Positions 1,863 to 62,611 of a stretch of DNA of 64,000 nt are shown here, piece after piece (the stretch's first letter is position 1; every line of letters starts with the position of its first letter). The notes below the pieces were generated by a model that worked only from the letters and a program-made list of their open reading frames with translations, made no database searches and had not been told where the DNA came from. The stretch is from contig JAHLKH010000007.1 in the NCBI GenBank assembly GCA_025526915.1, positions 217,335 to 281,334 of the forward strand, in the 5' to 3' direction. Source of the DNA: Entophlyctis helioformis. Its lineage: Eukaryota; Chytridiomycota; Chytridiomycetes; Chytridiales; Chytriomycetaceae. The position numbers and the translations under genes were made by a program.

Positions 1863-4800
1863 TCATTGCTTGATAAAGATCAAGTACTGCGCATGCACGA
1901 TCGGCATCACGCGCCGGCACCCTACACGTCCAGCGCGCTCCGACCGCCCCTCGGCCGCCCACTCGTCCGCATCTTCGCGCAGCCGCTCGCGCAGCTCGTC
2001 CACGGCCATCAGCTTGCGGCACGCATAGCCCTCGGGCACCACGGCCGTAAACTCCTTGAGCCGGAACTGCCCTGCCGTTTGCGCCACAAGGTCCTCGTGC
2101 ACGAGCACAGACAGCGGCACAAGACGGTTGGGCATCCTGAACTTGGCGACTTCACAGCTGGCCGAGGTAGTCGCACTTGTGTCGCTGGCGCTGTTCGCGG
2201 GTGCTGGGTTCAGCTGCATACTCTTGCCAACGTCGTCCTGGATCGACATCTCGTTGATCCCAAAACACAGCTCGTGCACGGGATCGCTGGCCGGGTCCAT
2301 GCCGTCGGGATACGCGTCGCGAGACTCGAGCACGACACGCACATCCTTCACGCCAACAATCAGAAACGCGCCGCGGTTCATGCGGCTGGCCGCTTCGAGC
2401 GCAGTCTGCACCAGAAAGGCGCGGTACTGCGAGATCCACGTGCCGTTTGGAAGGAGCGCCGTTGACGGGATGCTGAGGTGCGGCACAAACACGACGGATG
2501 GCGACGGAAGCCGTCGGTCGCCATCAGCCGTTGCGCTGTCGACATCGAGTGGCGGTGCCGACAGCAGCGATCTCAGGTATGCAGCATCGTCCTGCCCCTC
2601 TGGCGTCAATTGTGCCAGCAGACCCTGCACAACACGGGCATGATTAGTCACTATGCTGTGCATGCCTTGCATACTCGGGCACTCACCAGTTCAAGGAGTC
2701 GCCGGTTGTTCTCGCGGATACTGCGCGCGCGTTCACGCTCGTACTCGGGCAGGTTCGCTGCACCTCGGACGTCAGCAGCTATTCCAAAAGTCATGGCCAC
2801 ACACTGCAAACAGTGCCACGCACCATCAATCTCTTCGTCGCTGTCATCGTCTCCATCCTGTTGCCCGCCTCCATGATGACTATAATCATCGTCAGGCGGG
2901 TCGCGTTCAGCACAAATGTCGTCGTACACAGCGCTTGCCAGTAACTGCGTCCAACAAAGCCAAGTCAGTCGGTATGCACACAGCCCCTCACGCCAGTCTC
3001 GCTGCTTGGACGCATGTACCTGGTCTCGGAACTCGGGAAACGAGATCTGCTCCCAGTACGTATCGTCCTTGCCAAACCGTTGGATCTGCGTGTGTATGCA
3101 TCCATGCGTCCACCAGTCCACCGACCGCCTCCATGTCAGCGTCTGATCCCCATGCGCGGTACCATCAGCCAGTCTGAGCCTTACAATCTTGGACATGGCA
3201 AGCTTGGGCAGCGAGTACCGGGCCGTGACCTTGAACATCCAGACCGTACCAAGAACAGACCGTTTGCGGTCAATAGGACACCGCGGCACGCTGCGGAATG
3301 TGCTACGCTTGGAAACAGCCGGAAGATCCATGTCGAGACACTCTTGGATGCTCGGATACACGGCCGGCTTGTGTGCCTTGCGGAACACGGCGATGTACTC
3401 GTGCGTGAACATGAGAAAGTCGTACAGCATCGACAGATACGATCCGAGCGGCGCCATTTGACAATGCCGTTGCCGCTTCAGGAACTGTGCAGCGTGCAGT
3501 CAGCCTCCAGTCGTCCAGCCCGCATCCAGCACCAATCGGTCTCACCAGCTCCTCAATCTCAAACCCGCCGTCCATGTATGTGCGGATCGTTTGGTACGAT
3601 ATCGGCTGGTAGTAGCAGTCGCGTCGGTTGTCGCCAATCCCAAGCGTCACTCGGCCGTTCCACTTGAGCAGCCGCCACGACTCGGCAACCACGCGCGCCA
3701 TCTCGCTCTGGAACTCGGCAGGGTCCGGGAACCGCGACAGATCGCCATCGATATGCGAGCTGTACGCGACACAGTCCTTATAAGGCGGATGCGAGAGGAC
3801 GTGGGCATAGCTTTCAGACTCGAAGAGCGGCCCAGTCAGGTTGCGCGAGTCGCCGTGGACGATCATGGGTCGGTAGACGGCCGAGATGCGCATCGAGGGC
3901 GGCATGAAGAAGGATGCGTTGCGTTGGGCGAGAGCGACGGCAACAGGGTTGATGTCCACGGCACAGCAGCGCCGTTCGAGGAGAAACGATTCGATAGCGT
4001 CCGTGCCGCGGCCAATGAAGTTGGACAGGACTCGGTCGCCACGCTGGGTGTATCGCAGCAGCGACCATCTCACCAGCTGTGGAAGCCACGTACCTGTCAG
4101 AGAGAGCATCATCAATGTGCATCGCGTCAGCAACCACCGTGTCAACCACTGCCCAGTACGGCATCCATGATCAGCCGCACCGTGATAGTCAGATCCAGAA
4201 TGCGTGGCCCAGCGCGGTGCACGGCCGGGCACATCATAGTACGTGCTGTCCATGAACAGCGAGAACAGCTGATCGTCCTGTGGCGCATAGGTCGACAGGA
4301 ACGTTGGCGTCATGGCCGCCGTGCCCATGGCTTCTTCCTCGGCAGGACGACGGGCCGCCTTGCGTGTCATGTACACGTCGTACGCCTCGTAGTCTGCCAG
4401 GCCAATCAGCTCACGAGCAATAGGGTCTTGCAGGATGATCGGGTCGAGGAATGCATTGGCGCCGAGACCACCAATGCCGTAAGCGCTGCTTTCCGAGCCT
4501 TGGTCGTGGTAAGGCGCCAGGGCATCTGTCACCGCAGGCGTCCACCTTGATCCGAGATGCGTGCTCGGACGTTCATCTGGATCGGATGAAGGCTCGTGCT
4601 GTGGCGCAGATGAGCCCCAAAGCACCATCTCCCCTCTTGGATTCGGGAACAGTGTCTGGCTGTCGGGGCTGTTCGCACAGCGACTGCCGACGTCGAATAT
4701 GGATGCCGGCTTCGGCGCAGCGAGACGATGCGGATTGCCAGAAGAGAAGGCAGCGGTGACAGCCTCGTGAGCAGTTTTAAGGCGGTGCTTGAGCGCACTG

Positions 4801-7800
4801 CCAAGCTGGTCCGTGTTGATCTCGAGGCGGATGGACGCAGGAGCGAGCAGGAAACACGCCTCGCACAGAATCATGCCATTGAATCCTGCCATCGGTGGCG
4901 TGAGTTCTTTGAATGCCTGCAAGGCGGTGCGACGGCACCATGCACGTACCACGGCGCCACGACGAGCCGCAGTTGCTCCAGCAGAAAGCGCAAACTGGAT
5001 CGCGTGGCTGCTGCTTGAGTGGCTGCGGTTTTCTCTTGCTCCTGTTCTTGGGCATCATAATCGCCTGAGACTGATCGGCCCGTTCTGCCATGCGAAAGGA
5101 TGTGAGCCGTCCATCCATCGATCCGGGACACAAGTGCAGTAAAACTCACGAGCCTCCTCGTCAATCATGTCCTGAATACGCTGCCGTTCCTGCGCATTGG
5201 CTTCCTTTCGGCCCTCGCGTGCTAGCACCCACAAGTCAGCATCGTACTGGGAAAAAAGACTCGCACAGACCACCACTTACTGGTTTGCGAAAAGTCTGCC
5301 TTGCCATGCGCATGATCGCTCGGAAACGCATTCTCAAAGCATCCAAGACACAGATCAAATGTGGTGTAGTAGTCGTGCTGCATGCACACTTGGCACGTAT
5401 GCCACGGCTTGCTGTCGTTTTCGTCTTGGCCAAGCTTGGCCGCACACACGTCACAGCTGTACACGTCCTCGTAAACGTCTGTCGCGCCACACAACAAAAG
5501 TAAGCAACTCTCCACGTCGTAGACTGCAGCCGTGGCAGGCTGGCTCACCGATTCGGTTCAAGAACGCCTCGTGCGTGGGACACCAGTACAGGATCCCTTG
5601 CTCGAAATGCGACAGCGGTTTGCCCGTGCACGCCAGATGATAGCTCTTCATGCACTTGACATCAAAGCATCCAATCTGCCCATACTTTGGTCAGCCACCA
5701 ACAGTCAGCAACAGCCAGCCGCCCCAAACCTTACCGTGGCCCCCTTTCCCTTGCATGCCGTGCAGCGCATGTTGCGTCCACGCCGCACAGCTCGCAACAC
5801 ATTGTACCACTTGGCGTCGCGGCCCTCGCCAGAGACGTGCACTTCGGGCGAGAACCGTGCGCACGCAACATGCACCCAAAACACCTTTTTGCGTCTCTTG
5901 CCTAGGTTGGTCCCCGCCGCACTTGCCAACACCAGCGCCGTCTCGGTCACCGCCTCTCCGCCCACACGCGCAGTCGACGTGGACGATGTTTTGGATGTTG
6001 ACGACGCCAAGAACGGCATCTCAACAAACGGCCCAACGACATTCTCGGCATCGTCATTGCAAAACGCGCAAACGCGGCGTCCGATGTATGGCACGCGGCC
6101 CTCGCTCAGAGCGGCAAAAAAGTCGGCGTCGAAACGGTCGGCCTCGAATGTGGTGACAAACTTGCCGCCGGTCTGGTTGGGCAGCATCTGGCGGCCCGTG
6201 GGCAGGACCTCGAGGATTGGCTGCATGGCAAACGACGACCGCGGATGCTCGTGGAACGGAAAGTTGCACTGGAAGCAGAGAAGACAGAGATTGAACGACG
6301 CTGGATGGTCCCATGCAGCATGCGTCGACGGATGTTGCTGCTGCTGCTGATGGGCAGGCAGTGACGCCTCGCAGTAGGTGCAGTAGTACCGGTACTGGCG
6401 GATACGGTCGCCGCACTGGTTGCACCGGATCTTGGACTGCGCGGGATCGTCGTCCATCTCATCGTCATCAATGTCGTCATGGTAGTTGGGGACATGTGCA
6501 TGATCGTGGCCGCGAGCTGGGACAACAGCGTTATGAGGGCTGGAGACTGATGTCGCGTGCGCGGCGACTTGCAGCGGCTTCCTCGACCGAGCAACAGAGG
6601 CAACAGCGTCTCGAGCAAAGCGCACAATACCCATGCCAGGCGTCTCGATATCGTCATCGGCATCCTGAGTGCGGTCACAATCTGCCACAGCCGAAGAAGC
6701 AGGCTCGCCACGCTCGACGGCGTCTCGACTCGGATCCCTGAACACGACCCTGATATGGACCGGCTTGGTCGGGAGTGTTGGCTGTGCAGACGCCTCCAGT
6801 GTTGGAGCGCTTGGTTCCAGCTCCTCGGGCGGGACGATTGCAGGCGACAGGTACTTGCGTCGCACGGCTGGTTTCCGAGGCTGCCCCTGAATAGCCGGTT
6901 GGCTTCCTGCAGCTGGCTGCGAGTCTGCAACTGCGGGCAGAGATCCGCTGGTAACAGGATCGTCTGGCGACAGCTCAACAATGCGGCTCGAGTCCAGCAT
7001 CTCGGGCTCGGTTTGCATTGCAGCCTGTGCAGCCCTCGGCAGCCTCCCAGCAAGGCTAGAATCAGCCCTCGTGCCAGATCGAGCATGGCCATGCTGACGC
7101 CGCACTTGTGAAGGCTTGACAACATCAACGCGACTGGTCTCGTCCGCGTTGCTGTCGCCACTCGCGGCGGTCGTTGCTGGCGCGACAGTAGCCGACGTTG
7201 GTGCATGTCGCAGTCGCAGCCTTGCGCTGGCAGCAACAATCCATTCGTCAAACTCGGGCCCCCAACCCTCGTACCGCACGAGGATACGGCCGTGGCGGAA
7301 CTCGAGCATGTACCCTGGCCACCACGTGCCCTGTCCATCCGAAACCTCGACGAGCCGCCGTGGCGCAAAGATGCTGCTGCTTGCAGGCCGAGAAATTGTG
7401 CCAGCACGAGGCAGTTGGACAGTATGCGCGGATCTGCGAGACACCGAACTGGAAGATCGGGGCTTGGACGCTGACGCCTTGGCGTGGCGCGACTGAACTG
7501 CTGCCGTGGCTGTCGTAGCTGACGCGGCAGAGGTCGATGTGCACTTGGGATCAGAGCAGAACCATAACTGCTCAACGTCGAGTGCTCTGGATGGCTGGAT
7601 GTTGGGCGTATGGCATTTCTGGTGGTATCGTGTCCCGCAGCCGTCGCAAATGGCAATCTGGTTGTGCAGGTCAGCCGGGTCCTCATGGCCAGAGCAGATC
7701 GAGCATGTCGGTGGAGAAGCAGCCATCTGGGTATCGTCATCGCCTGCCGCGGATGCAGCTGGAGCCTGCGCAGCATGATCATCAGGCTGGCCTGAACGAG

Positions 7801-10175
7801 GAGCCAAATCAGCCGCCGTTGCAGCAGACTCTGCCAATGGGTCGAGCGGCGAGACTTTGGCCTGCAGTTCGCGCCGTTTCTGATTGTGCTGCTGCTGCTG
7901 GCGACGACGCCGATCGCGCACAGAGAAGCCAAACACCTCGATGCTGCTGGGCACGAGCTCATCGTCAACTTCGTCGTCAACCACGATCTCTTGGAACACG
8001 TCGTCATCGTCGTCGTCGCCATCGTCAACAGCATCATTTCCACCAGCACCTTGCCCATCATTCCCGGCAGTAGCAGTTGTATGGCTCTTGATGCCAGACG
8101 TTCGCGGCCGCAGTCCAGCAGGAGCACCAGGAAGACTGATGACACGCACACGCACCGACTCCCAGTCGATCCACTCGTCGTACTTGGACCCCCAGCCGTC
8201 AAACGTGATGCGGCGCTTGCTGCCGCGTGCCTCGACGACTTGGCCTGGCCAGTACGTGTATGCCGCGTCGGCGACCTCAACGCGAGATCCGACTGGCAAG
8301 CCCCCAATGATCTGAGTGGACTGGATTTGACTCATGGCTGCCAGGGTGCGGCGCGTTGGGAACAGACGCGTATCCATGAGGTCGACAACGTGCTGCAGCT
8401 GTGGTTTGTTGAGGGATCCCTTGGGACGACCACGGCCGCGCTTTGGCTGTGTTTGCTGCTGCTGCTGCTGCTCTGGCGGTTGGTGCGCTTGCCTTTCATC
8501 CACGCCATGACTGGCGGCAGGCTGCATTCGCGGCTGTTGTTCAGGCACGCTGGGCTGGGCACTTGACTCGCGTGACTCGTCCATGTCTGAGCGAGTGCTT
8601 GGTTCAGGCGATGGGTCAAGTATGTCAGGCGACGATTCATGCGACTGCGACTGATCGGCTGCTTGTGCCATATGGAACTGCTGGAACTGGAACTCGTCGA
8701 GACGGCGCTGCCGCCGCTCGTCCTCTTGCTGCTTGTACCGCTGGTTCATGAGATCGCGGATGCTGACGTTGGCGTGCCAGGATCCAGACGCTGTCGGAAT
8801 GAACTTGCGTTTGAGCGAGCCCTTGGGACGGCCGCGGGGACGCCGCGGGGCTGAATCTTGCGATCTCTTGTCGCCATCAAGGCCGTGCTCCTGGTCGTCG
8901 CTGCCATCTGGTGCCTCCTCTGCGTCCGCCTTGGCGTCAGCAGCAGCATCAACGACAGGCTCTTGTGTCTGCGCAATGGGAACAGGATCGAACGTGGCTT
9001 GAGACGTCTGGTCTGGCACATGTGACTCGGGAAAAGCGCGATCGGCAGGGCGGACTTGTGTTGGTATGATGCCCGCATGAGACTGCCCAGACGAACTCGA
9101 CTGCATCTGCTGTTGCGGCGCCTGTTGCGCCTGTTGTGCAGCCATGTCTTGAAAGCGGGCCATCTCAAGCTCCATCTGGCGCGCCAGCATGGCCGACTTT
9201 GTGGATCCTTTGGGGCGGCCACGGCGACGTTTGGGTTGGGGTTCATCGACAGCTGCATCTGCAGATGTTGTGGCGGATGTTGTGGTGGATGTGGTTGCAG
9301 ATGCAGATGCCGAAAAGGGAGTTGCAGGGCCGATCGTCTGATTATCATTAGGTGGTAGTGTGGTGGTCGTGGTGGCGATGGGCGTTGTCGTTGAGGTGCA
9401 TGAAGCAGCTGTTGGTGTCAATGCGGTTGTCAATGCGGCTGTTGCTGTTGATGCAGGCGGCAAGGACGGCAGATCATGGCCGAGATTGCTGGTCACGGGG
9501 GCTTCGTGGGGCTGCTCGCTGAGACGGGCAGCGACGGGCGACGGGCGATGCTCGAGCTGCACGAGCTGGTCCAGACGGCGCTTGAGCATGGCCTGCTTGG
9601 TCGAGCCCTTGGGGCGTCCACGGCCTCGCTTGGCTGGATGCGGCTGCTGCTGCTCTCCCGCAACGTCCTGCGGATCAACAGCATCGATGGAGTTGGATGG
9701 GGCAGCGTCGGTTGCTGGGGCAACAGCAGCAGCGAGGACAGCGAGGACAGCGACGCAGCGACGGTGGCAGCGACGGTGGGCGACGTGGCAGCAACGGACA
9801 AGAGTGCAAGGAGAAGGAGGCGGGTTAGTTGCGCACGATCCGCAGACGCCGTTGCGCACGGCAGCCGAGCCACGCACCAGACAGAGCCGCCGCACTCGAG
9901 GCGCACGGCACGGTGGCGGCGGCGCGTGTGCCTTGGTCTTTCTCGCCGAAGAACCGAAAATCGATTGGGATCGACTCGGTATCAGCAGGGCTGGGGAAGC
10001 GGCGGACGGCCAGTCTGCCGGCCAGTTTGTCAGCCGGTCTGCTGGCCAGTCTGCCAGTCTGCCAGCCAGGAATGTCTGTAAACAGACACGCAGGCCAGCC
10101 AGCCAGCCGTGCACACGCACGCGCCGGCTGTCCACAGGATCTCGCCTGTCGCGGTGGCCACGGTGATGGCGCTGC
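1863..10175 (-). CDS. Multidomain chromatin-reader / DNA amino-methyltransferase
   Basis: One gene of about 2,500 codons. Domains in protein order, by window position: four AT-hooks with core RGRPKGS (about 9,630, 9,220, 8,840 and 8,430); Tudor-knot/chromo-barrel 1 (8,300-8,130); PHD finger (7,720-7,535); Tudor-knot 2 (7,375-7,220); ZZ-like finger (6,440-6,230); extended PHD (6,080-5,570); second ZZ-like finger (5,470-5,285); GATA-like Cys4 finger (5,000-4,855); catalytic domain (about 4,200-3,330); and a C-terminal methylase-like module (2,624-1,863). The catalytic domain has a YHGTW start, an FxGxGT SAM motif (NFIGRGTDAIE) and a motif IV SHPPY, then GIGDNRR and KRQRHC, as in bacterial N6-adenine/N4-cytosine methylases. 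Supported introns include 5676-5734, 5479-5548, 5222-5280, 4094-4180, 3485-3545 and 2625-2686. Others, near 5,100 and 4,950, are approximate. The start is uncertain: an ATG lies at 10,175, but an upstream intron may exist. A role in DNA methylation guided by histone marks is inferred. Confidence 0.85.
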
Positions 10176-10251
10176 ATTGTCGCGCTGGCCCGGGTTGCCC
10201 ACCAGCCCAACAGGTAACAGCCCAGCGGCCCGCATCGAGCCCCGACACGCC

Positions 10252-11385
10252 ATGGATCCCACGCAGCCCGCCAGCTTCCGCCACTGCTTTGCGACGCTCA
10301 ACGGCCGCAAGCACCACTACGTCGAGGAGGGCCGCCCCGAGAGCGGCGGCGCTGCCCGCCCGCTGGCCGTCCTTGTCCACGGCTTCCCGGACCTGTGGTA
10401 CGGCTGGCGCTACCAGATCCGCCCGCTCGTCGACGCTGGCTTCCACGTTCTCGTGCCGACCATGATTGGCTACGGCCAGACCGAGTCGCCTGCCGTGACC
10501 GAGGCCGACCAGGCCGCCCTTGTGCGCTACTCGTACAAGAGCGTCGCCAACGACCTCGCTGCGCTGCTGGACCATGCCAGCGGCGTGGCGGGCACCAGCG
10601 CCGTGTTCCTCGGCCACGACTGGGGCGGCATGGTCGTCTGGCGGGTCGCAATGCACCTGCCCGAGCGGGTGCGCGGCCTGGCCGTCTTCTGCACGCCGTT
10701 CCAGCCGCCGCACGGCCAGTACGTGCCCATCGAGCACATTGTCAAGGTGATGCCGCACCTCGGGTACCAGCAGACGCTCGCGGCGTTTGAGACGGGTCCG
10801 ATGGTCGCGGCCAACATCGACGTGTTTGTCGATGCCATGTTCCACTCGGGCGCGAGCGACGAGGCCACCAAGGCCGGCCTGAAGGAGCGGCTGGCCAAGG
10901 CCGAGCCGGCGGCGATTGCCGGCCTGCTCAGGATGTTTGCGTCGGGCCCCGGCATGGCGCGCCCGCTCAGCGAGCAGGAGCTGGCGTACTACCGCGAGCA
11001 GCACCGCGCGGGCGGGTCGCTGGTCCACGCGCTCAACTGGTACCGCACGCGCCGCATCAACTACGACGACGAGCTGCCGTTTGCGGGCGAGGCCGACACG
11101 GCCGTGTCGACGTCGGTGGCGGCCGAGGACGGCAAGAGCCGCAAGGTGTGGTTCAAGGACCTGCCGATCCGCTTTGTCGGCGCGACGGGCGACCCGTTCC
11201 TGCCCATGTCGATGGCCAAGTCGATGGAGGCCAACGTGCCGTCGGCAGTCATCTCGGCGGTCGAGGCCACGCACTGGCTGCTCGCGGAGAACCCGGCGGC
11301 GGTCAATGCCGCGCTGCTGCCGTTCATGGCCGGGCTCAAGGCGGCGTGGGAGAGCGAGCAGGCGAGCGCCGCGGCCCGGCTGTGA
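10252..11385 (+). CDS. Epoxide hydrolase-type alpha/beta hydrolase
   Basis: A single-exon gene of 377 residues. It has the oxyanion-hole motif HGFPDLWYGW, the nucleophile elbow GHDWGGMVVW with catalytic Asp, a variable cap domain with LNWYR, and a C-terminal GDPFLP and ATHWLL carrying the likely Asp and His of the triad. This layout matches soluble epoxide hydrolases, which open epoxides to diols through an aspartyl ester. Fluoroacetate dehalogenase-like relatives share the fold, so the substrate is not certain. There is no signal peptide, so it is probably cytosolic or peroxisomal. It is divergent from the methyltransferase gene, with less than 100 bp between the proposed starts. Third positions are almost all G or C. 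Confidence 0.9.
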   Translation: MDPTQPASFRHCFATLNGRKHHYVEEGRPESGGAARPLAVLVHGFPDLWYGWRYQIRPLVDAGFHVLVPTMIGYGQTESPAVTEADQAALVRYSYKSVANDLAALLDHASGVAGTSAVFLGHDWGGMVVWRVAMHLPERVRGLAVFCTPFQPPHGQYVPIEHIVKVMPHLGYQQTLAAFETGPMVAANIDVFVDAMFHSGASDEATKAGLKERLAKAEPAAIAGLLRMFASGPGMARPLSEQELAYYREQHRAGGSLVHALNWYRTRRINYDDELPFAGEADTAVSTSVAAEDGKSRKVWFKDLPIRFVGATGDPFLPMSMAKSMEANVPSAVISAVEATHWLLAENPAAVNAALLPFMAGLKAAWESEQASAAARL

Positions 11386-11558: not shown

Positions 11559-13861
11559 ATGTCGGGCATCTACACCGTCGAAGAAGTCGCCAAGCACAAC
11601 ACGGACAAGGACGTCTGGGTGCGTCGTCGTTGTTGTGTCTGCGTCGTCGTGCCTTTGCAGTTGTGCCTTCATAGTCGTGCTCTCGTTGTTGTCGTTGTTG
11701 CTGCTCCGCGTCTGCTGCTGCGTGCTGCGTGCTGCGTGCTGCGTGCTGCGTGCTGCGTGCTGCGTGCTGCGTGCTGCGTGCTGCTACCCCACACGCACGG
11801 CTTGTTCCGTCGTGCTGTTGCTGACCCACCTGCCTGCCTGCCACCTGCTGCCACTCACCTACAACTCGGCCCGCTCTCTGCACGGCTTCGGATGCACTCC
11901 ACCAGATCATCGTCCATGGCAACGTACGTCACACTGGCTGCCACACTGGCTGTCGTGCTTGCTTGCTTGCCAGCTTAACCGTCCGGCTGACCATCCGGCT
12001 GCCCATCTGCCCATCTGCCCTCGTCCAGGTCTACGACGTCACGGGCTTCCTCAACGACCACCCGGGCGGCAAGAAGGTGCTCGTCAAGGTCGCCGGCAAG
12101 GACGCATCGAAGCAGTTTGACCAGTTCCACAACGCCGCCGTCCTCAACCAGTACGGCCCCGGCCTGCTCAAGGGCAAGATCGGATCGGCCTCGGCCGCCC
12201 CCGCCGCTCCAAAGGCCGCCGCTGCTCCCGCTGCCGTCTCGTACGACACTCCCGCTGTCGGCCTCGAGGAGGGCGACGCCTTTGGCGAGATCATCCCCTA
12301 CGGCGACCCTGCCTGGTACACTGGCTTCTCGCCCTACTACAACGACAGCCACAGAAAGGTGCGTTGCCTGCCGGCCGTTGACACGCTGTGCTGCTGCTGC
12401 TGCTGCTGACTCGCAGGCGTCTTTCACGTGCATGATGATCCGTGAACGCGTTGCGCTGGTCAGCTGCGCTCGTTCATGCGCAACTTTGTCGAAAAGGAGA
12501 TCATGCCGCACGCCCACGTCTGGGACGAGGCCAAGGAGCTGCCGCGCGAGCTGTTCCTCAAGGCCGGCAAGGCCGGCATCCTGCAGTCCGTCATTGGCCA
12601 CCCGTACCCCGCAAAGTACTCGGACGTGCCTCCTCCCTGCGGCATCAAGGCCGAGGACTTTGACGCATTCCACGAGGTGCGGAGCCACACGCTTGCTGCC
12701 CAATGGCGCGTGCCTTGTCTAGATCTGCACATGGACTCACCGCTCCTTCTCCTGATAGTTTGTGGTCTGCGACGAGCTGTCGCGCTGTGGATCGGGCGGT
12801 GTGCTCTGGGGTCTCATTGGCGGTCTCGGCATTGGTCTCCCGCCCATCATGAACTTTGGCTCCGACTACCTCAAGGAGAAGGTGGCTCCTTCCTGCCTCT
12901 CGGGCCAGAAGAACATCTGTCTTGCCATCACTGAGCCGAGCGCCGGCAGTGACGTGGCCAACCTCGTCACCGAGGCCAAGAAGACTGCCGACGGCAAGCA
13001 CTTTATCGTCAACGGCGAGAAGAAGGTGCGTCTGGTGTTGTGCACACGCCTCGCATCCATGACGGCATCATCTGGGCTATCCATGCTGACCTTGCTTTGG
13101 CCGCCAATGCGTTGCACATTTTGCTGGGTCGGTTGCAGTGGATCACTAACGGCACCTATGCCGACTACTTTACGGTTGCCGTCCGCACCGGCGGCCCCGG
13201 CATGAACGGCGTGTCGCTCCTGCTCATTGAGCGCTCGATGCCCGGTGTCAAGACACGCCACATGCCCTGCTCGGGCGTGTGGGCCTCTGGCACGTCGTTT
13301 GTGTCGTTTGAGGACGTCAAGGTGCCGGTCGAGAACCTCATTGGCCAGCTCAACAAGGGCTTCAAGTGCATCATGTACAACTTCAACCACGAGCGCATGG
13401 GCATTGCCATCCAGGCCACGCGGTTTGCGCGCGTGTGCGTGGAAGAGTCGCTCAAGTACGCGCACAAGCGCAAGACGTTTGGCAAGAAGCTCATTGACCA
13501 CCCGGTGATCCGCAACAAGCTCGGCCACATGATCCGCAAGGTCGAGGCGACGCACGCGTGGATGGAGTCGCTTATTTTCCAGACGACTCGCATGCCCGGC
13601 GAGATGCAGATGCTCAAGCTTGGCGGCCCGATTGCGCTGCTCAAGGCGCAGTCGACGCAGACGATGGAGTTTTGCGCGCGCGAGGCGGCCCAGATCTTTG
13701 GCGGCCTCAGCTTCTCGCGCGGAGGACAGGGCGAGAAGATCGAGCGGCTGTACCGCGAGGTGCGTGCCTACGCCATCCCCGGTGGATCCGAGGAGATTAT
13801 GCTGGACCTCGGTGTGCGCCAGAGCATCAAGGTGTCGCAGTTCCTTGGAGCCAAGCTTTAG
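11559..13861 (+). CDS. Cytochrome b5-acyl-CoA dehydrogenase fusion
   Basis: Five exons (11559-11618, 12029-12358, 12464-12676, 12759-13025, 13139-13861) total 1,593 nt, or 530 residues, with phases that agree. Residues 1 to about 75 form a cytochrome b5 domain with the heme motif HPGG, followed by an Ala/Pro linker. The rest is a full acyl-CoA dehydrogenase: [11 protein letters not shown] in the flavin/substrate region, the WITNGTYAD strand, RKTFGKKL and IERLYRE, with [10 protein letters not shown] near the end. Enzymes of this fused type are known in fungi; the b5 domain is thought to feed or accept electrons during acyl-CoA oxidation or desaturation. The protein ends GAKL, which is not a canonical SKL. 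The first intron (410 nt) is unusually long here and holds a heptamer repeat. Confidence 0.93.
11717..11784 (+). repeat. Tandem 7-bp repeat (GTGCTGC) in intron 1 of the b5-acyl-CoA dehydrogenase gene
   Basis: About nine perfect copies of a CGTGCTG-type heptamer lie inside the first intron. Because seven is not a multiple of three, copy-number change here would be harmless only in non-coding sequence, which supports the intron call. Confidence 0.85.
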
Positions 13862-53337: not shown

Positions 53338-56001
53338 TTACGCCTTCTGGGCCATCAGGTTGAGGGCACTGCCGGCCTTGAACCAGCCAATCTGGCCCTC
53401 GTTGAAGGTGTGGTTGAGCTTGATGTCCAGCGTGGAGCCGTCCTGCTTGTGGACCTTGAGGGTCAGGCCCTTGCCGGGAGCAAACGAGGTGAGGCCAACA
53501 ATCGACACCTTGTCCGAGGGCGAGATGCGGTCGTAGTCCTTGGGGTCGGCAAACGTCAGGGGGAGCATGCCCTGCTTCTTGAGGTTGGTCTCGTGGATGC
53601 GGGCAAACGAGCGGACAATGACGGCAACACCGCCAAGGTGGCGGACCTCGAGAGCGGCGTGCTCGCGCGACGAGCCCTCGCCGTAGTTCTCGTCACCAAT
53701 GACGACCCACTTGATGCCCTGGGCCTTGTAGTCGCGGGCAGTCTTGGGCACGGGCTCGTACTTGTTCGTCAGAACGTTGAGCACCGAGTTGGCCTCACCG
53801 TTGGCCTCGTTGATGGCGCCAATGAGCATGTTGTTGGAGATGTTGTCCAGGTGGCCGCGGTACTTGAGCCACGGGCCGGCCATCGAGATGTGGTCGGTGG
53901 TGCACTTGCCCTTGGCCTTGATGAGGATCTCGGCCTTCTCAATGTCCTTGCCGTTCCACGCGGAGAAGGGCGTCAGGAGCTGCAGACGGTTCGAGGTCGG
54001 GGAGACGACCACGGCGACGTTGGAGCGGTCGGCGGGGGGAGCCTGGTAGGTGTTCTCGCCGGCGTCGTAGCCACGGGGAGGGAGCTCGTCGCCGTTGGGG
54101 GCAGCAAACTTGAAGTCCTTGCCGTCGGCGGTCTTGAGCACGTCCGTGACGGGGTTGAAGGTGAGGTCGCCCGAGAAGACCATGGCAGTCACGAGCTCGG
54201 GCGAGGCGACAAAGGCGTGGGTGGCGGGGTTGGCGTCGTTGCGGCCGGTGAAGTTGCGGTTGTACGACGTGATGATCGAGTTCTTGACGCCCTTGGCAAC
54301 GTCCTTGCGGTCCCACTGGCCAATGCAGGGGCCGCAGGCGTTGGCGAGCACGACACCGTTGGCCTTGGCGAACACGTCGCTGAAGCCGTCGCGCTCGATG
54401 GTGGCGCGGATCTGCTCGGAGCCGGGGGTGATGGTGAACTTGGCCTTGGCGGCGACGCCAGCGTCAAGGGCCTGCTTGGCCAGCGAGGCGGCGCGGGCCA
54501 TGTCCTCGTACGACGAGTTGGTGCACGAGCCAATGAGGCCGACCTTGAGCTCGGCGGGCCAGTTGTTCTTGATGAGCGTCTCCTTGAACTTGCTCAGGGG
54601 CGTGGCGAGGTCGGGCGTGAAGGGGCCGTTGATGTGCGGCTCGAGCGTGTTGAGGTCGATCTCAATGACCTGGTCGTACTTGGCGCCGGCGTCGGCGGTC
54701 AGGTTGTGCTTGAAGGCCGTGGCGTAGTCGGCGATGCCGGCGCGGTTGGTGGCGCGCAGGTAGTCGGCCATGCGCGAGTTGAAGGGGAACAGCGACGTGG
54801 TCGCGCCAATCTCGGCGCCCATGTTGCAGATGGTGGCCATGCCCGTGCACGAGATCGAGTCGACGCCCGAGCCAAAGTACTCGACGATGGCGCCGGTGCC
54901 GCCCTTGACCGTGAGGATGCCGGCGACCTTGAGGATGATGTCTGCGCGGGGCGTCGTGAGACACGCGCGTGAGACAGGCGTGCGAGGTGTGTGTGAGACA
55001 CTATCCCATCCACCATCCATTCCCTCATCGACATCCATCGACATCCACTTCACATTCCATTCCATCATCGACAGCGACACGCTTCCTCCTTACCCTTGGG
55101 AGAGGTCCAGCCGTTGAGCTTGCCCGTCAGCTTGACACCAATCACCTTGGGGCACTTGAGCTCCCACGGGATGTTGGCCATCACGTCCACGGCATCGGCA
55201 CCGCCGACACCAACAGCAACCATGCCGAGACCGCCGGCGTTGGGCGTGTGCGAGTCCGTGCCGATCATGAGACCGCCGGGGAAGGCGTAGTTCTCGAGAA
55301 TGATCTGGTGGATAATGCCAGAGCCCGGGCGCCAGAAGCCGATGCCGTACTTGGCCGAGCACGTCGACAGAAAGTCGTACACCTCCTTGTTGAGGTCCTT
55401 GGCACGCGCAAGGTCCTTGACACCACCGATCTGGGCCTCGATCAGGTGGTCACAGTGCACCGTCGTGGGCACGGCAACGGTCGGGAGGCCGGCAGACATG
55501 AACTGGAGAAGAGCCATCTGGGCAGTGGCGTCCTGGCAAGCAACGCGGTCGGGGCGGAGCTTGAGGTATGAGGTGCCACGCTTGATGTCCTGGTTGACGG
55601 CATCGTCGAGGTGGCCGTACACAACCTTCTCGGCGAGCGTGAGGGGGTGCTGGAGTCTGTGCGGCAAGGCAAGCAAGGAGCAGGCGGCAGCCGTGAGCAA
55701 GGCGCAATCAATCAATCGGGCAGCGATGGGAGGCGGCATCATCAGACAGCAGGCACGCCAGAAGGCAGGCACGCCGGCACGCACGAGACGCATACCTGTC
55801 GCGGACGACCTTGAGGTTGTCCTCGATGCGCTTGTAGTTGATGTACTTGTCCTTCTCGAGAACCGAGAGGGCGACCTTCTTGTCGGCAATGCTGGCAAAC
55901 GAGCGGGTGGACGCAGCACGAGCCGCTGTGGCACGGGTAGCCTGCGGTTGCCGCAGGCGGGCAGCGTGGGATCGCAGCGAGTGGGCCGTCGTCGTAGTCA
56001 T
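53338..56001 (-). CDS. ACO1: Mitochondrial aconitase
   Basis: Exons 56001-55796, 55656-55094 and 54941-53338 sum to 2,373 nt, or 790 residues. The Arg/Ala-rich leader ([17 protein letters not shown]) is a mitochondrial targeting peptide. Catalytic and cluster motifs are present: [38 protein letters not shown], the cluster cysteines in [11 protein letters not shown] and [21 protein letters not shown] and [12 protein letters not shown]. It interconverts citrate and isocitrate in the TCA cycle using a 4Fe-4S cluster. Codons end almost only in C or G, a bias suggesting high expression. A long antisense ORF is a product of that bias. Confidence 0.97.
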
Positions 56002-61186: not shown

Positions 61187-62066
61187 TTATTCAACGGACT
61201 GGCCGCCATACAAGGTCCATGGGTTGGGCAGACGTTCCAGAGATGCAGCGTATGAATGGGACCGTGGGTCTGCGCTCGGGTCGGAGCGTGGATCGGCATA
61301 CTCTGGAAGAATAAAGGCCGCAGACGAGGCACCAGAGTCCGGCTGCTGGCGCAGCTGCGAATACGACTGCGAATACGACTGCGAAAACGACTGCGAATAC
61401 GACTGTGAATGCACGCTTGGATGCAACGGAGCCGATCGAGGCCGCGGGTCTGGCAGGAACGGCTCTGCCGATCTGCCTCCAAAGGCAGGAGGGGCAGCAC
61501 CGACAGAAACACCAGACGCGCCTGCCAGTGGCAGTCTGACGCGTTGCTGGCTCTCCCACGTCTCTTGCTCTCGATCCAAGAACCGCTGCTGTTCCTCTGT
61601 GATCGGATCGTGCGAGTACGGACACGCATCGCCATGCCGACACCCGCCCTTTTCCTTCTTGAAGTGGTGGAACACGCACGGCGAGTCCTTGAGATTGTGC
61701 GAGAACGGACACTGCGATCCAGAAAGGCAGCTGCCAGACTTGAAGTAACGACAGACTTGCTTGGACCGCGGATCGCCGCCGGGACCGTCGTGAGAAAAGA
61801 GACACGAGGAGCCAGCGGTGCACTGAAACTTTGCCCAGAATGCACATGGCGGACGGGCCTTGGGCTCTGCCTTGGATTCTGCCTGGGGCGGCCGCGCAGG
61901 CTGCCGTTGTTTGGACCGATCGTTGGCGGGCTGCTTCTTGGATGCCTGTTTCCTTGCAAGCATTGTGGCATTGCCAGTCTGTCCAGTCTGCGTCTGGTGC
62001 TGCCGGTGATCGAGGCCAGGCGGTGATTGTCTGTGGCTAGAGATATCTGGCAGGTGACCTTGCTGT

Positions 62067-62097
<31 letters not shown>

Positions 62098-62509
62098 TCT
62101 TGTTACGCTTCCTCGCAGAGCCGCTCATATGGGAGTGAGGCGAGTGGACTGCCCCTGGCGTCGATGCGTCTCCAAAGGATCGCTTGAGGCTCGATGCTGC
62201 TAGCGCAGAGGGTATAGGGGCTGCAACAGGAACAGCGCCAGGCTCCTCCTCAAGCTCGCCTTCTTCCAGCTCGCCGTCCTCAAGGTCTGCAGCTGGTTCG
62301 GAGCGAGGCCTCGGCGCTGTTGTCGAGTCGGCTTGGCCGTCCACACCGGCACGCTTGCCATGTGCTGCTACACCGGCCACTGCTGCGGCCTCTGCTAGAA
62401 CATCCGCCGAGGCGACCTGCACTGGCATTGACGGCACCATCAGGTCTGGCAGCCCCATGTCTCCATCGTCAAGCTCGTCGTCATCGCTGCCAAACTCGAC
62501 AACATTCAT
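61187..62509 (-). CDS. Triple CCCH zinc-finger protein
   Basis: A single exon of 440 residues from MNVVEFGSDDDELDDGD. An acidic N-terminus with GELEEGELEE precedes a basic Lys/Arg patch, a run of 12 glutamines, and three CCCH fingers: CAFWAKFQCTAGSSCLFSH, CRYFKSGSCLSGSQCPFSH and CVFHHFKKEKGGCRHGDAC-PYSH. A Ser/Tyr/Gln repeat (SYSQSFSQSYSQSYSQ) lies near the end. Finger spacing resembles ZC3H4/ZC3H6/Suppressor-of-sable proteins, nuclear RNA-binding factors that restrain transcription of short RNAs. The family call is moderate; RNA binding through the fingers is well established for the type. Confidence 0.88.
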
Positions 62510-62611
62510 TGTGCAAGGGAAGCCCAAGTCACGGCTCGTCGACAAAGCCGTTGCAACCCAGACCAGCGACGAGTTCATCGGCCTGGCTCAGCTGACTCGC
62601 GGCACGCCGCA

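What the first reader, a model, noticed from the sequence alone, without database searches (positions are those of the whole stretch)
1863..10175. A chromatin-reading DNA methyltransferase: AT-hooks, Tudor-knots, PHD, ePHD, ZZ-like and GATA-like fingers fused to a bacterial-type amino methylase
Seen in the sequence: four RGRPKGS hooks, two YWPG.../DEWI Tudor-knots, a PHD and an ePHD (C-terminal half CFDVKCMKSYHLACTGKP), two ZZ-like fingers and a catalytic domain with NFIGRGTD and SHPPYKD, all joined by clean introns on one strand. Known: early-diverging fungi carry abundant N6-methyladenine, usually ascribed to MT-A70 enzymes, and bdelloid rotifers captured a bacterial N4C methylase fused to a chromodomain. 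Inference: this is an independent capture of a bacterial methylase armed with histone and DNA readers, a candidate self-targeting epigenetic writer in a chytrid.
Basis: partly seen in the sequence, partly recalled or inferred. Interest (0 to 1): 0.93.

Follow-up and report, generated by a model that had tools for sequence, protein, structure and literature searches.

The report
Chromatin-reading DNA methylase of early fungi
A chytrid gene joins DNA-binding and histone-reading parts to a DNA-methylating enzyme apparently taken long ago from a bacterial restriction-modification system; the same fused gene occurs in many early-branching fungi and in two single-celled relatives of animals, so it may be an overlooked, ancient way of marking DNA.

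Summary
The reading as an independent chytrid capture does not hold: the same fusion occurs in many early-diverging fungi and in two proteins I assign to Holozoa, and eukaryotic-type catalytic domains form one clade (100/100). Nearest kin are prokaryotic Type II restriction-modification methylases with the same HPPY motif (6.8e-40). The best tree joins them to a two-domain form (alternatives not rejected) that shares the C-terminal domain, a degenerate methylase half: an active/inactive pair in one chain. HPPY is neither DPPY nor SPPY. In Mucor, published metB and mta1 deletions account for both reported 6mA classes although an ortholog exists, so bulk 6mA is unlikely and 4mC is a live option. 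Against: PDB fold matches are led by tRNA methylases. Activity, expression, reader targets and the base modified are untested. A 2016 review that may list this family could not be read.

The parts
1863..10177 (-). Whole coding model: 12 exons, 2522 aa, stop included; start codon unsure
   Evidence: Spliced open frame, all introns GT-AG; fused order repeated in homologs
9602..9628 (-). AT-hook 1 (RGRPKGS)
9203..9229 (-). AT-hook 2
8816..8842 (-). AT-hook 3
8414..8440 (-). AT-hook 4
8138..8299 (-). Tudor/MBT-like domain 1 (residues 627-680)
   Evidence: Pfam MBT; profile hits 115 of 117 long homologs
7538..7714 (-). PHD finger (822-880)
   Evidence: Pfam PHD; profile hits only 2 of 117 long homologs
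7202..7369 (-). Tudor/MBT-like domain 2 (937-992)
   Evidence: profile hits 114 of 117 long homologs
6227..6433 (-). ZZ-like zinc finger 1 (1249-1317)
   Evidence: profile hits 116 of 117 long homologs; Pfam ZZ just under cut-off in P0048
5562..6079 (-). Extended PHD (1367-1519), interrupted by the intron 5734-5676
   Evidence: PF13832/PF13771; profile hits 117 of 117 long homologs
5291..5464 (-). ZZ-like zinc finger 2 (1529-1586)
   Evidence: profile hits 116 of 117 long homologs
4842..5004 (-). GATA-like finger (1641-1673), interrupted by the intron 4949-4886
   Evidence: profile hits 112 of 117 long homologs; splice choice set by homologs
3377..4256 (-). Catalytic amino-methyltransferase domain (1869-2112), interrupted by the introns 4180-4094 and 3545-3485; motif I NFIGRGTD at 3999-4022, motif IV SHPPY at 3780-3794
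   Evidence: PF01555 just under cut-off; PADLOC Type II methyltransferase model 6.8e-40; coordinates
1866..3280 (-). C-terminal domain (2145-2522), interrupted by four introns: degenerate second methylase half without motif I or HPPY
   Evidence: HHalign to the bacterial C-terminal domain 99.4%; bacterial N-half against bacterial C-half 98.8%

Best explanation
It is a chromatin-guided DNA amino-methyltransferase of early-diverging fungi and some unicellular Holozoa. An early opisthokont (inferred) acquired a prokaryotic Type II restriction-modification methylase of the HPPY group, in the two-domain form that holds an active half and a degenerate half. That unit became fused behind Tudor-like, ZZ-like, extended-PHD and GATA-like domains. 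Proposed working: AT-hooks and Tudor/PHD/ZZ domains dock the protein on nucleosomes with particular histone marks; the active half binds SAM through motif I and takes a flipped base into the HPPY pocket; the inactive half serves as a built-in partner that grips DNA, as the inactive subunit does in METTL3-METTL14 and AMT1 complexes; the product is a methylated exocyclic amino group, 4mC or a minor 6mA. Shown here: the gene, its fusion, its conservation, its relation to Type II methylase models and the degenerate second half. Inferred: activity, DNA as substrate in the cell, reader targets, the modified base, the number and date of transfers.
For: Fusion conserved: of 117 long homologs picked for methylase motifs, the extended PHD is found in 117, ZZ-like fingers and C-terminal domain in 116, Tudor-like in 114-115, GATA-like in 112. 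SHPPY is present in 49 of 49 proteins of the first, motif-blind search. The window catalytic domain matches PADLOC Type II methylase model PDLC03376 at 6.8e-40 over model positions 20-249 of 249; Spizellomyces 8.4e-43, Clim 2.1e-36, Nk52 6.8e-45, Geranomyces 9.5e-33 and bacterial kin 5.2e-92 and 1.7e-115. Pfam PF01555 is above its cut-off in 5 of 5 relatives tested. PHROGs phage DNA-methyltransferase families match (3.6e-9 and weaker; best hit of unknown function 3.1e-12); best PDB sequence match is a putative modification methylase (2.2e-4). One eukaryotic-type clade, 100/100, in two trees. A Type II restriction-enzyme match lies directly downstream in 4 of 21 two-domain prokaryotic loci (L004, L011, L018, L020). 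C-terminal homology and tandem duplication. Confident two-domain model, pLDDT 86.3, pTM 0.89. The viral fold library is led by phage proteins, three of the first five named as methylases or AdoMet-MTases, and includes giant-virus proteins annotated cytosine-N4-specific.
Confidence: 0.7

Rival explanations
1. It is an RNA methylase (tRNA, rRNA or nascent transcript) held at chromatin, related to Trm11/TrmN.
Confidence: 0.13
2. It is catalytically dead in eukaryotes and acts only as a DNA- and histone-binding platform.
For: Motif I reads VLSNF where bacterial kin read VLD; the base-contact residue is His rather than Asp/Asn/Ser; long stem branch of 1.78 before the eukaryotic-type clade.
Against: SHPPY in 49 of 49 proteins of the motif-blind search, and the HPPY tetrad also in 80 of 80 GTDB loci kept, so His is the family's own residue. 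A dead domain would be expected to decay, as the C-terminal half did.
Confidence: 0.1
3. Independent, recent capture of a bacterial methylase in a chytrid.
For: Bacterial-type catalytic domain in a fungal gene.
Against: Shared fusion across many early-diverging fungi and two Holozoa proteins, and one clade at 100/100.
Confidence: 0.02
4. The fusion is a gene-model artefact: neighbouring genes were joined by my splicing.
For: No transcript data; start codon unsure; two splice sites chosen with homologs in view.
Against: The extended PHD lies in the same protein as the methylase in 117 of 117 long homologs; introns fall inside the extended PHD, the GATA-like finger and the catalytic domain.
Confidence: 0.03

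Closest known systems
Prokaryotic Type II restriction-modification methylase group of PADLOC model PDLC03376 (HPPY group)
   Same: Catalytic domain homologous nearly end to end and same HPPY motif; the two-domain form also shares the C-terminal degenerate half
   Different: No chromatin readers seen in the prokaryotic proteins; motif I reads VLD rather than VLSN; the eukaryotic gene stands without a visible restriction enzyme
Bdelloid rotifer N4CMT (PMC8885841, passages read)
   Same: Bacterial amino-methylase captured by a eukaryote
   Different: SPPY motif and reported 4mC activity there, HPPY here; much wider host range here.
MetB of Mucoromycota (PMC11258239, passages read)
   Same: Bacterial-type DNA methylase in early-diverging fungi
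   Different: PF02384 family with asymmetric 6mA; no PF02384 match in this protein or found in this genome (a search that also missed the window gene with PF01555, so a weak negative)
AMT1/MTA1 complex, MT-A70 (PMC12695648, passages read)
   Same: Active/inactive methylase pair tied to chromatin
   Different: PF05063 family; here both halves lie in one polypeptide of another family
Trm11, TrmN, Trm14 tRNA methylases
   Same: Closest PDB folds
   Different: Far below the TIGR01177 sequence cut-off; no THUMP found

Membership tests
PF01555 N6_N4_Mtase | Score above the Pfam gathering cut-off | tested here: inconclusive
   Window 26.2 bits against 26.7; relatives P0003, P0048, P0185, P0069 and P0088 all above it
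PF01555 N6_N4_Mtase | Motif IV [D/N/S]PP[Y/F/W] (partly recalled; DPPY, NPPY, SPPY) | tested here: not met
   HPPY in the window and in 49 of 49 first-search homologs
Type II R-M methylase PDLC03376 (HPPY group) | Match over the model length | tested here: met
   6.8e-40, model positions 20-249 of 249
Type II R-M methylase PDLC03376 (HPPY group) | Restriction enzyme beside the gene | tested here: not met
   For the window gene: none seen; the gene upstream reads as a hydrolase by eye. For prokaryotic two-domain kin it is seen in 4 of 21 loci. So it derives from, but is not, an R-M system
MT-A70 / AMT1 | PF05063 domain | tested here: not met
   No PF05063 among Pfam matches
MetB | PF02384 domain | tested here: not met
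   No PF02384 among Pfam matches
Bdelloid N4CMT | SPPY catalytic motif | tested here: not met
   SHPPY; SPPY for N4CMT from passages
Bdelloid N4CMT | 4mC activity | not testable with these tools
   Needs an enzyme assay
Trm11/TrmN tRNA m2G methylase | Fold of the catalytic domain | tested here: inconclusive
Trm11/TrmN tRNA m2G methylase | Family sequence score (TIGR01177, identity recalled) | tested here: not met
   11.8 bits against cut-off 316.55
Trm11/TrmN tRNA m2G methylase | THUMP RNA-binding domain (recalled) | tested here: not met
   No THUMP among Pfam matches of either half

The most novel reading that the evidence does not exclude
Early opisthokonts carried a second, AMT1-independent read-write DNA amino-methylation system, possibly 4mC, built by fusing a tandem active/inactive restriction methylase to histone readers; it survives in early-diverging fungi and a few Holozoa and was lost in Dikarya and animals.
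Probability: 0.3. Interest if true: 0.92.

Novelty: new variant of a known kind. Interest (0 to 1): 0.74.

Why it matters
The 2026 review of fungal DNA methylation that I read in passages names MTA1c, MetB and a METTL4-like enzyme as fungal 6mA writers; this family is not among them in those passages. A conserved reader-writer fusion of restriction-modification origin across early fungi would be an overlooked DNA-marking enzyme. It makes the question of 4mC in fungi directly testable in species that already have nanopore data, such as Spizellomyces punctatus and Corallochytrium (PMC12695648, passages).

Tried and rejected
Scans of GTDB genomes and IMG/VR with the eukaryotic alignment matched patterns but found no relatives; an alignment of bacterial proteins did.

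A PF01555 search of the window's own genome found nothing, though the gene is there: the domain lies just under the cut-off and is split by introns. So the negative for PF02384 in the same genome is weak. A protein query found three pieces, all of this gene.

A ~160-190 aa open frame follows the methylase in several two-domain loci; five look alike (L005, L008, L010, L016, L017, 45-75% identity to L017), two are weaker (L006, L009, 25-27%). I suspected a restriction enzyme, but it has no Pfam or PADLOC match and its model no PDB match better than E 1.4. It is left unidentified and not counted among the 4 of 21.

Exact donor: the best 79-row tree nests the eukaryotic-type clade among two-domain prokaryotes, but holding it with the one-domain group is not rejected (p-AU 0.31), nor are two-domain prokaryotes as their own clade (p-AU 0.35). 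I rely on the shared C-terminal domain for the two-domain link.

Other profile comparisons: eukaryotic N-half against eukaryotic C-half 0.1%, eukaryotic N-half against bacterial C-half 2.7%, bacterial N-half against eukaryotic C-half 54.8%. The duplication is clear only within bacteria. P0041 dropped out of the eukaryotic set and L016 was left out of the bacterial set there.

None of the 50 PDB rows shown by Foldseek or by VIA-align is named a DNA amino-methylase; this excludes nothing.

My first count of catalytic motifs in 117 of 117 long homologs is circular, because those proteins were picked by these motifs; I use (49 of 49; 80 of 80 GTDB loci) instead.

Papers: only passages were read of PMC12695648, PMC8298701, PMC8885841, PMC11258239, PMC13297926 and PMC7862722; all others only in search listings. 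Iyer, Zhang and Aravind 2016 (PMC4738411) is not held; I recall that it counts at least 13 captures of adenine methylases by eukaryotes, so this family may be in it.
Full report
WHAT IS THERE. The region 10177-1863, minus strand, splices into one frame of 2522 aa through 11 GT-AG introns of 45-99 nt. Two splice choices of my first model were changed to fit homologs. Domain order: four AT-hooks, Tudor/MBT-like 1, PHD, Tudor/MBT-like 2, ZZ-like 1, extended PHD, ZZ-like 2, GATA-like finger, methyltransferase, C-terminal domain. In the sequence order along the protein the four hooks come first (residues 186-588). The start codon is unsure: the ATG at 10177 lies about 75 bp from the ATG of a divergent gene, and the first ~175 residues have no counterpart that I identified in homologs.

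HOW WIDE IS IT. A search with the catalytic region gave 49 proteins at E<=0.001. By their names they are early-diverging fungi (chytrids, Mucorales, Mortierella relatives, Glomeromycota, Kickxellomycotina, Zoopagomycotina, Entomophthoromycotina; grouping from memory), except one EukProt record with prefix Clim. A search from that protein gave 148 proteins, of which 120 were listed; the named ones are again such fungi, plus a EukProt record with prefix Nk52; several are unnamed metagenome proteins. I recall Clim as Corallochytrium limacisporum and Nk52 as Chromosphaera perkinsii, both unicellular Holozoa. I see no Dikarya or animal name among the listed rows; 28 rows were not listed and the search needs shared words, so absence is not shown. 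The closest named relative by overall match is Polyrhizophydium stewartii (P0047, 40-45% over the main segments), so I place the window in or near that chytrid order; the species is not known to me.

SAME ARCHITECTURE. Of 240 proteins held, 117 are at least 1300 aa and carry HPPY plus the motif I core, the two criteria by which I picked them. Profiles seeded from the window find the extended PHD in 117, ZZ-like fingers in 116, the C-terminal domain in 116, Tudor-like domains in 114-115, the GATA-like finger in 112 and the N-terminal PHD in 2. The two Tudor profiles and the two ZZ profiles each hit both copies, so their counts are not independent. An [RK]GRP hook is present in 50 of 117. Hooks and PHD are thus variable; the ZZ - extended PHD - ZZ - (GATA) - methylase - C-terminal core is the conserved unit. 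The Clim protein has no detected Tudor or GATA part, the Nk52 protein no GATA part. In this genome a protein query finds only this gene. The genome also has four MT-A70 matches (two of them look like copies) and four 5mC-type methylase matches, some being pieces of one gene; none for PF02384 (a weak negative since one search missed the window gene itself).

WHERE IT CAME FROM. A profile search scored 7999 candidates (the cap) and gave 103 proteins, among them ~245-aa and ~450-490-aa prokaryotic proteins, 30-40% identical to the window domain. The two-domain form occurs in Chloroflexota, Nitrospirota, Planctomycetota, Aminicenantes, Armatimonadota, a Thorarchaeota bin and others; the one-domain loci kept are mostly Bacillota. 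In a 79-row tree the 31 eukaryotic-type rows (some of unnamed metagenome origin, called eukaryotic by their sequence) are one clade (100/100) and join the two-domain prokaryotes (100/99). A 62-row tree repeats the clade (100/100), but AU tests do not reject that clade sitting with one-domain proteins (p 0.31) or two-domain prokaryotes as a separate clade (p 0.35). The eukaryotic C-terminal domain matches the bacterial one at 99.4% HHalign probability (23 eukaryotic and 19 prokaryotic rows), and the bacterial C-half matches the bacterial N-half at 98.8%: the unit is a tandem duplication whose second copy lost motif I and HPPY. One clade fits one transfer into eukaryotes; later transfers between eukaryotes are not excluded.

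WHICH BASE. HPPY is neither DPPY nor SPPY. Mucor lusitanicus CBS 277.49 has an ortholog (P0021), yet in the passages read, metB deletion removes asymmetric 6mA and mta1 or p1 deletion removes symmetric 6mA (PMC11258239); no metB/mta1 double deletion was in those passages. That leaves 4mC, a rare or conditional 6mA, or another product. Pointing the other way, DpnII-type neighbours suggest GATC, where adenine is the usual target (recalled), and names under weaker plasmid and phage matches include DNA adenine methylase. I put 4mC slightly ahead of 6mA; neither is shown.

HOW IT MAY WORK. The AlphaFold model of P0006 (Geranomyces variabilis, 614 aa, from the methylase through the C-terminal half) is confident as one unit (pLDDT 86.3, pTM 0.89). 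By analogy with METTL3-METTL14 and AMT1 complexes, the inactive half may be a built-in DNA-gripping partner. The readers would place the unit on marked nucleosomes. These steps are inference.

IS IT KNOWN. Ten literature searches were made. The passages of the 2026 fungal review list MTA1c, MetB and a METTL4-like enzyme but not this family; 'N6_N4' has no occurrence in the main text of PMC11258239, PMC12695648, PMC8298701 or PMC7862722. Most subscription papers and all preprints are not held, and Iyer et al. 2016 could not be read, so prior description is possible. I file it as a new variant of a known kind: a eukaryotic capture of a restriction-modification methylase, distinct in its readers, its tandem degenerate half and its HPPY motif.

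Noticed in passing
window 10252-11385, +: Divergent alpha/beta-hydrolase-like gene (epoxide hydrolase type, read by eye) starting about 75 bp from the methylase ATG: a shared two-way promoter or a wrong start codon.
   Followed up: partly
window 11560-13861, +: Cytochrome b5-like part followed by an acyl-CoA dehydrogenase-like part, read by eye; an intron holds a GTGCTGC repeat near 11720-11785.
   Followed up: no
window 53338-55080 and 61187-62578, -: Aconitase-like and CCCH zinc-finger-like open frames, read by eye.
   Followed up: no
G000, L104-L111 and further places: Twenty matches to the AlkB-type 2OG-Fe family, 16 over the cut-off, two with the same score and length (C200, C478); several hold one in-frame TGA. 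Introns or many damaged copies.
   Followed up: no
L015: A Thorarchaeota (Asgard) bin carries the two-domain HPPY methylase beside a D12-class adenine methylase.
   Followed up: no
L005, L008, L010, L016, L017 (weaker: L006, L009): A conserved ~160-190 aa open frame without a known fold or family follows the two-domain methylase.
   Followed up: yes
L081: An IMG/VR contig carries a two-domain HPPY methylase, 65% identical in its best segment to a Dehalococcoidia protein, matched in four frames and so perhaps broken.
   Followed up: no
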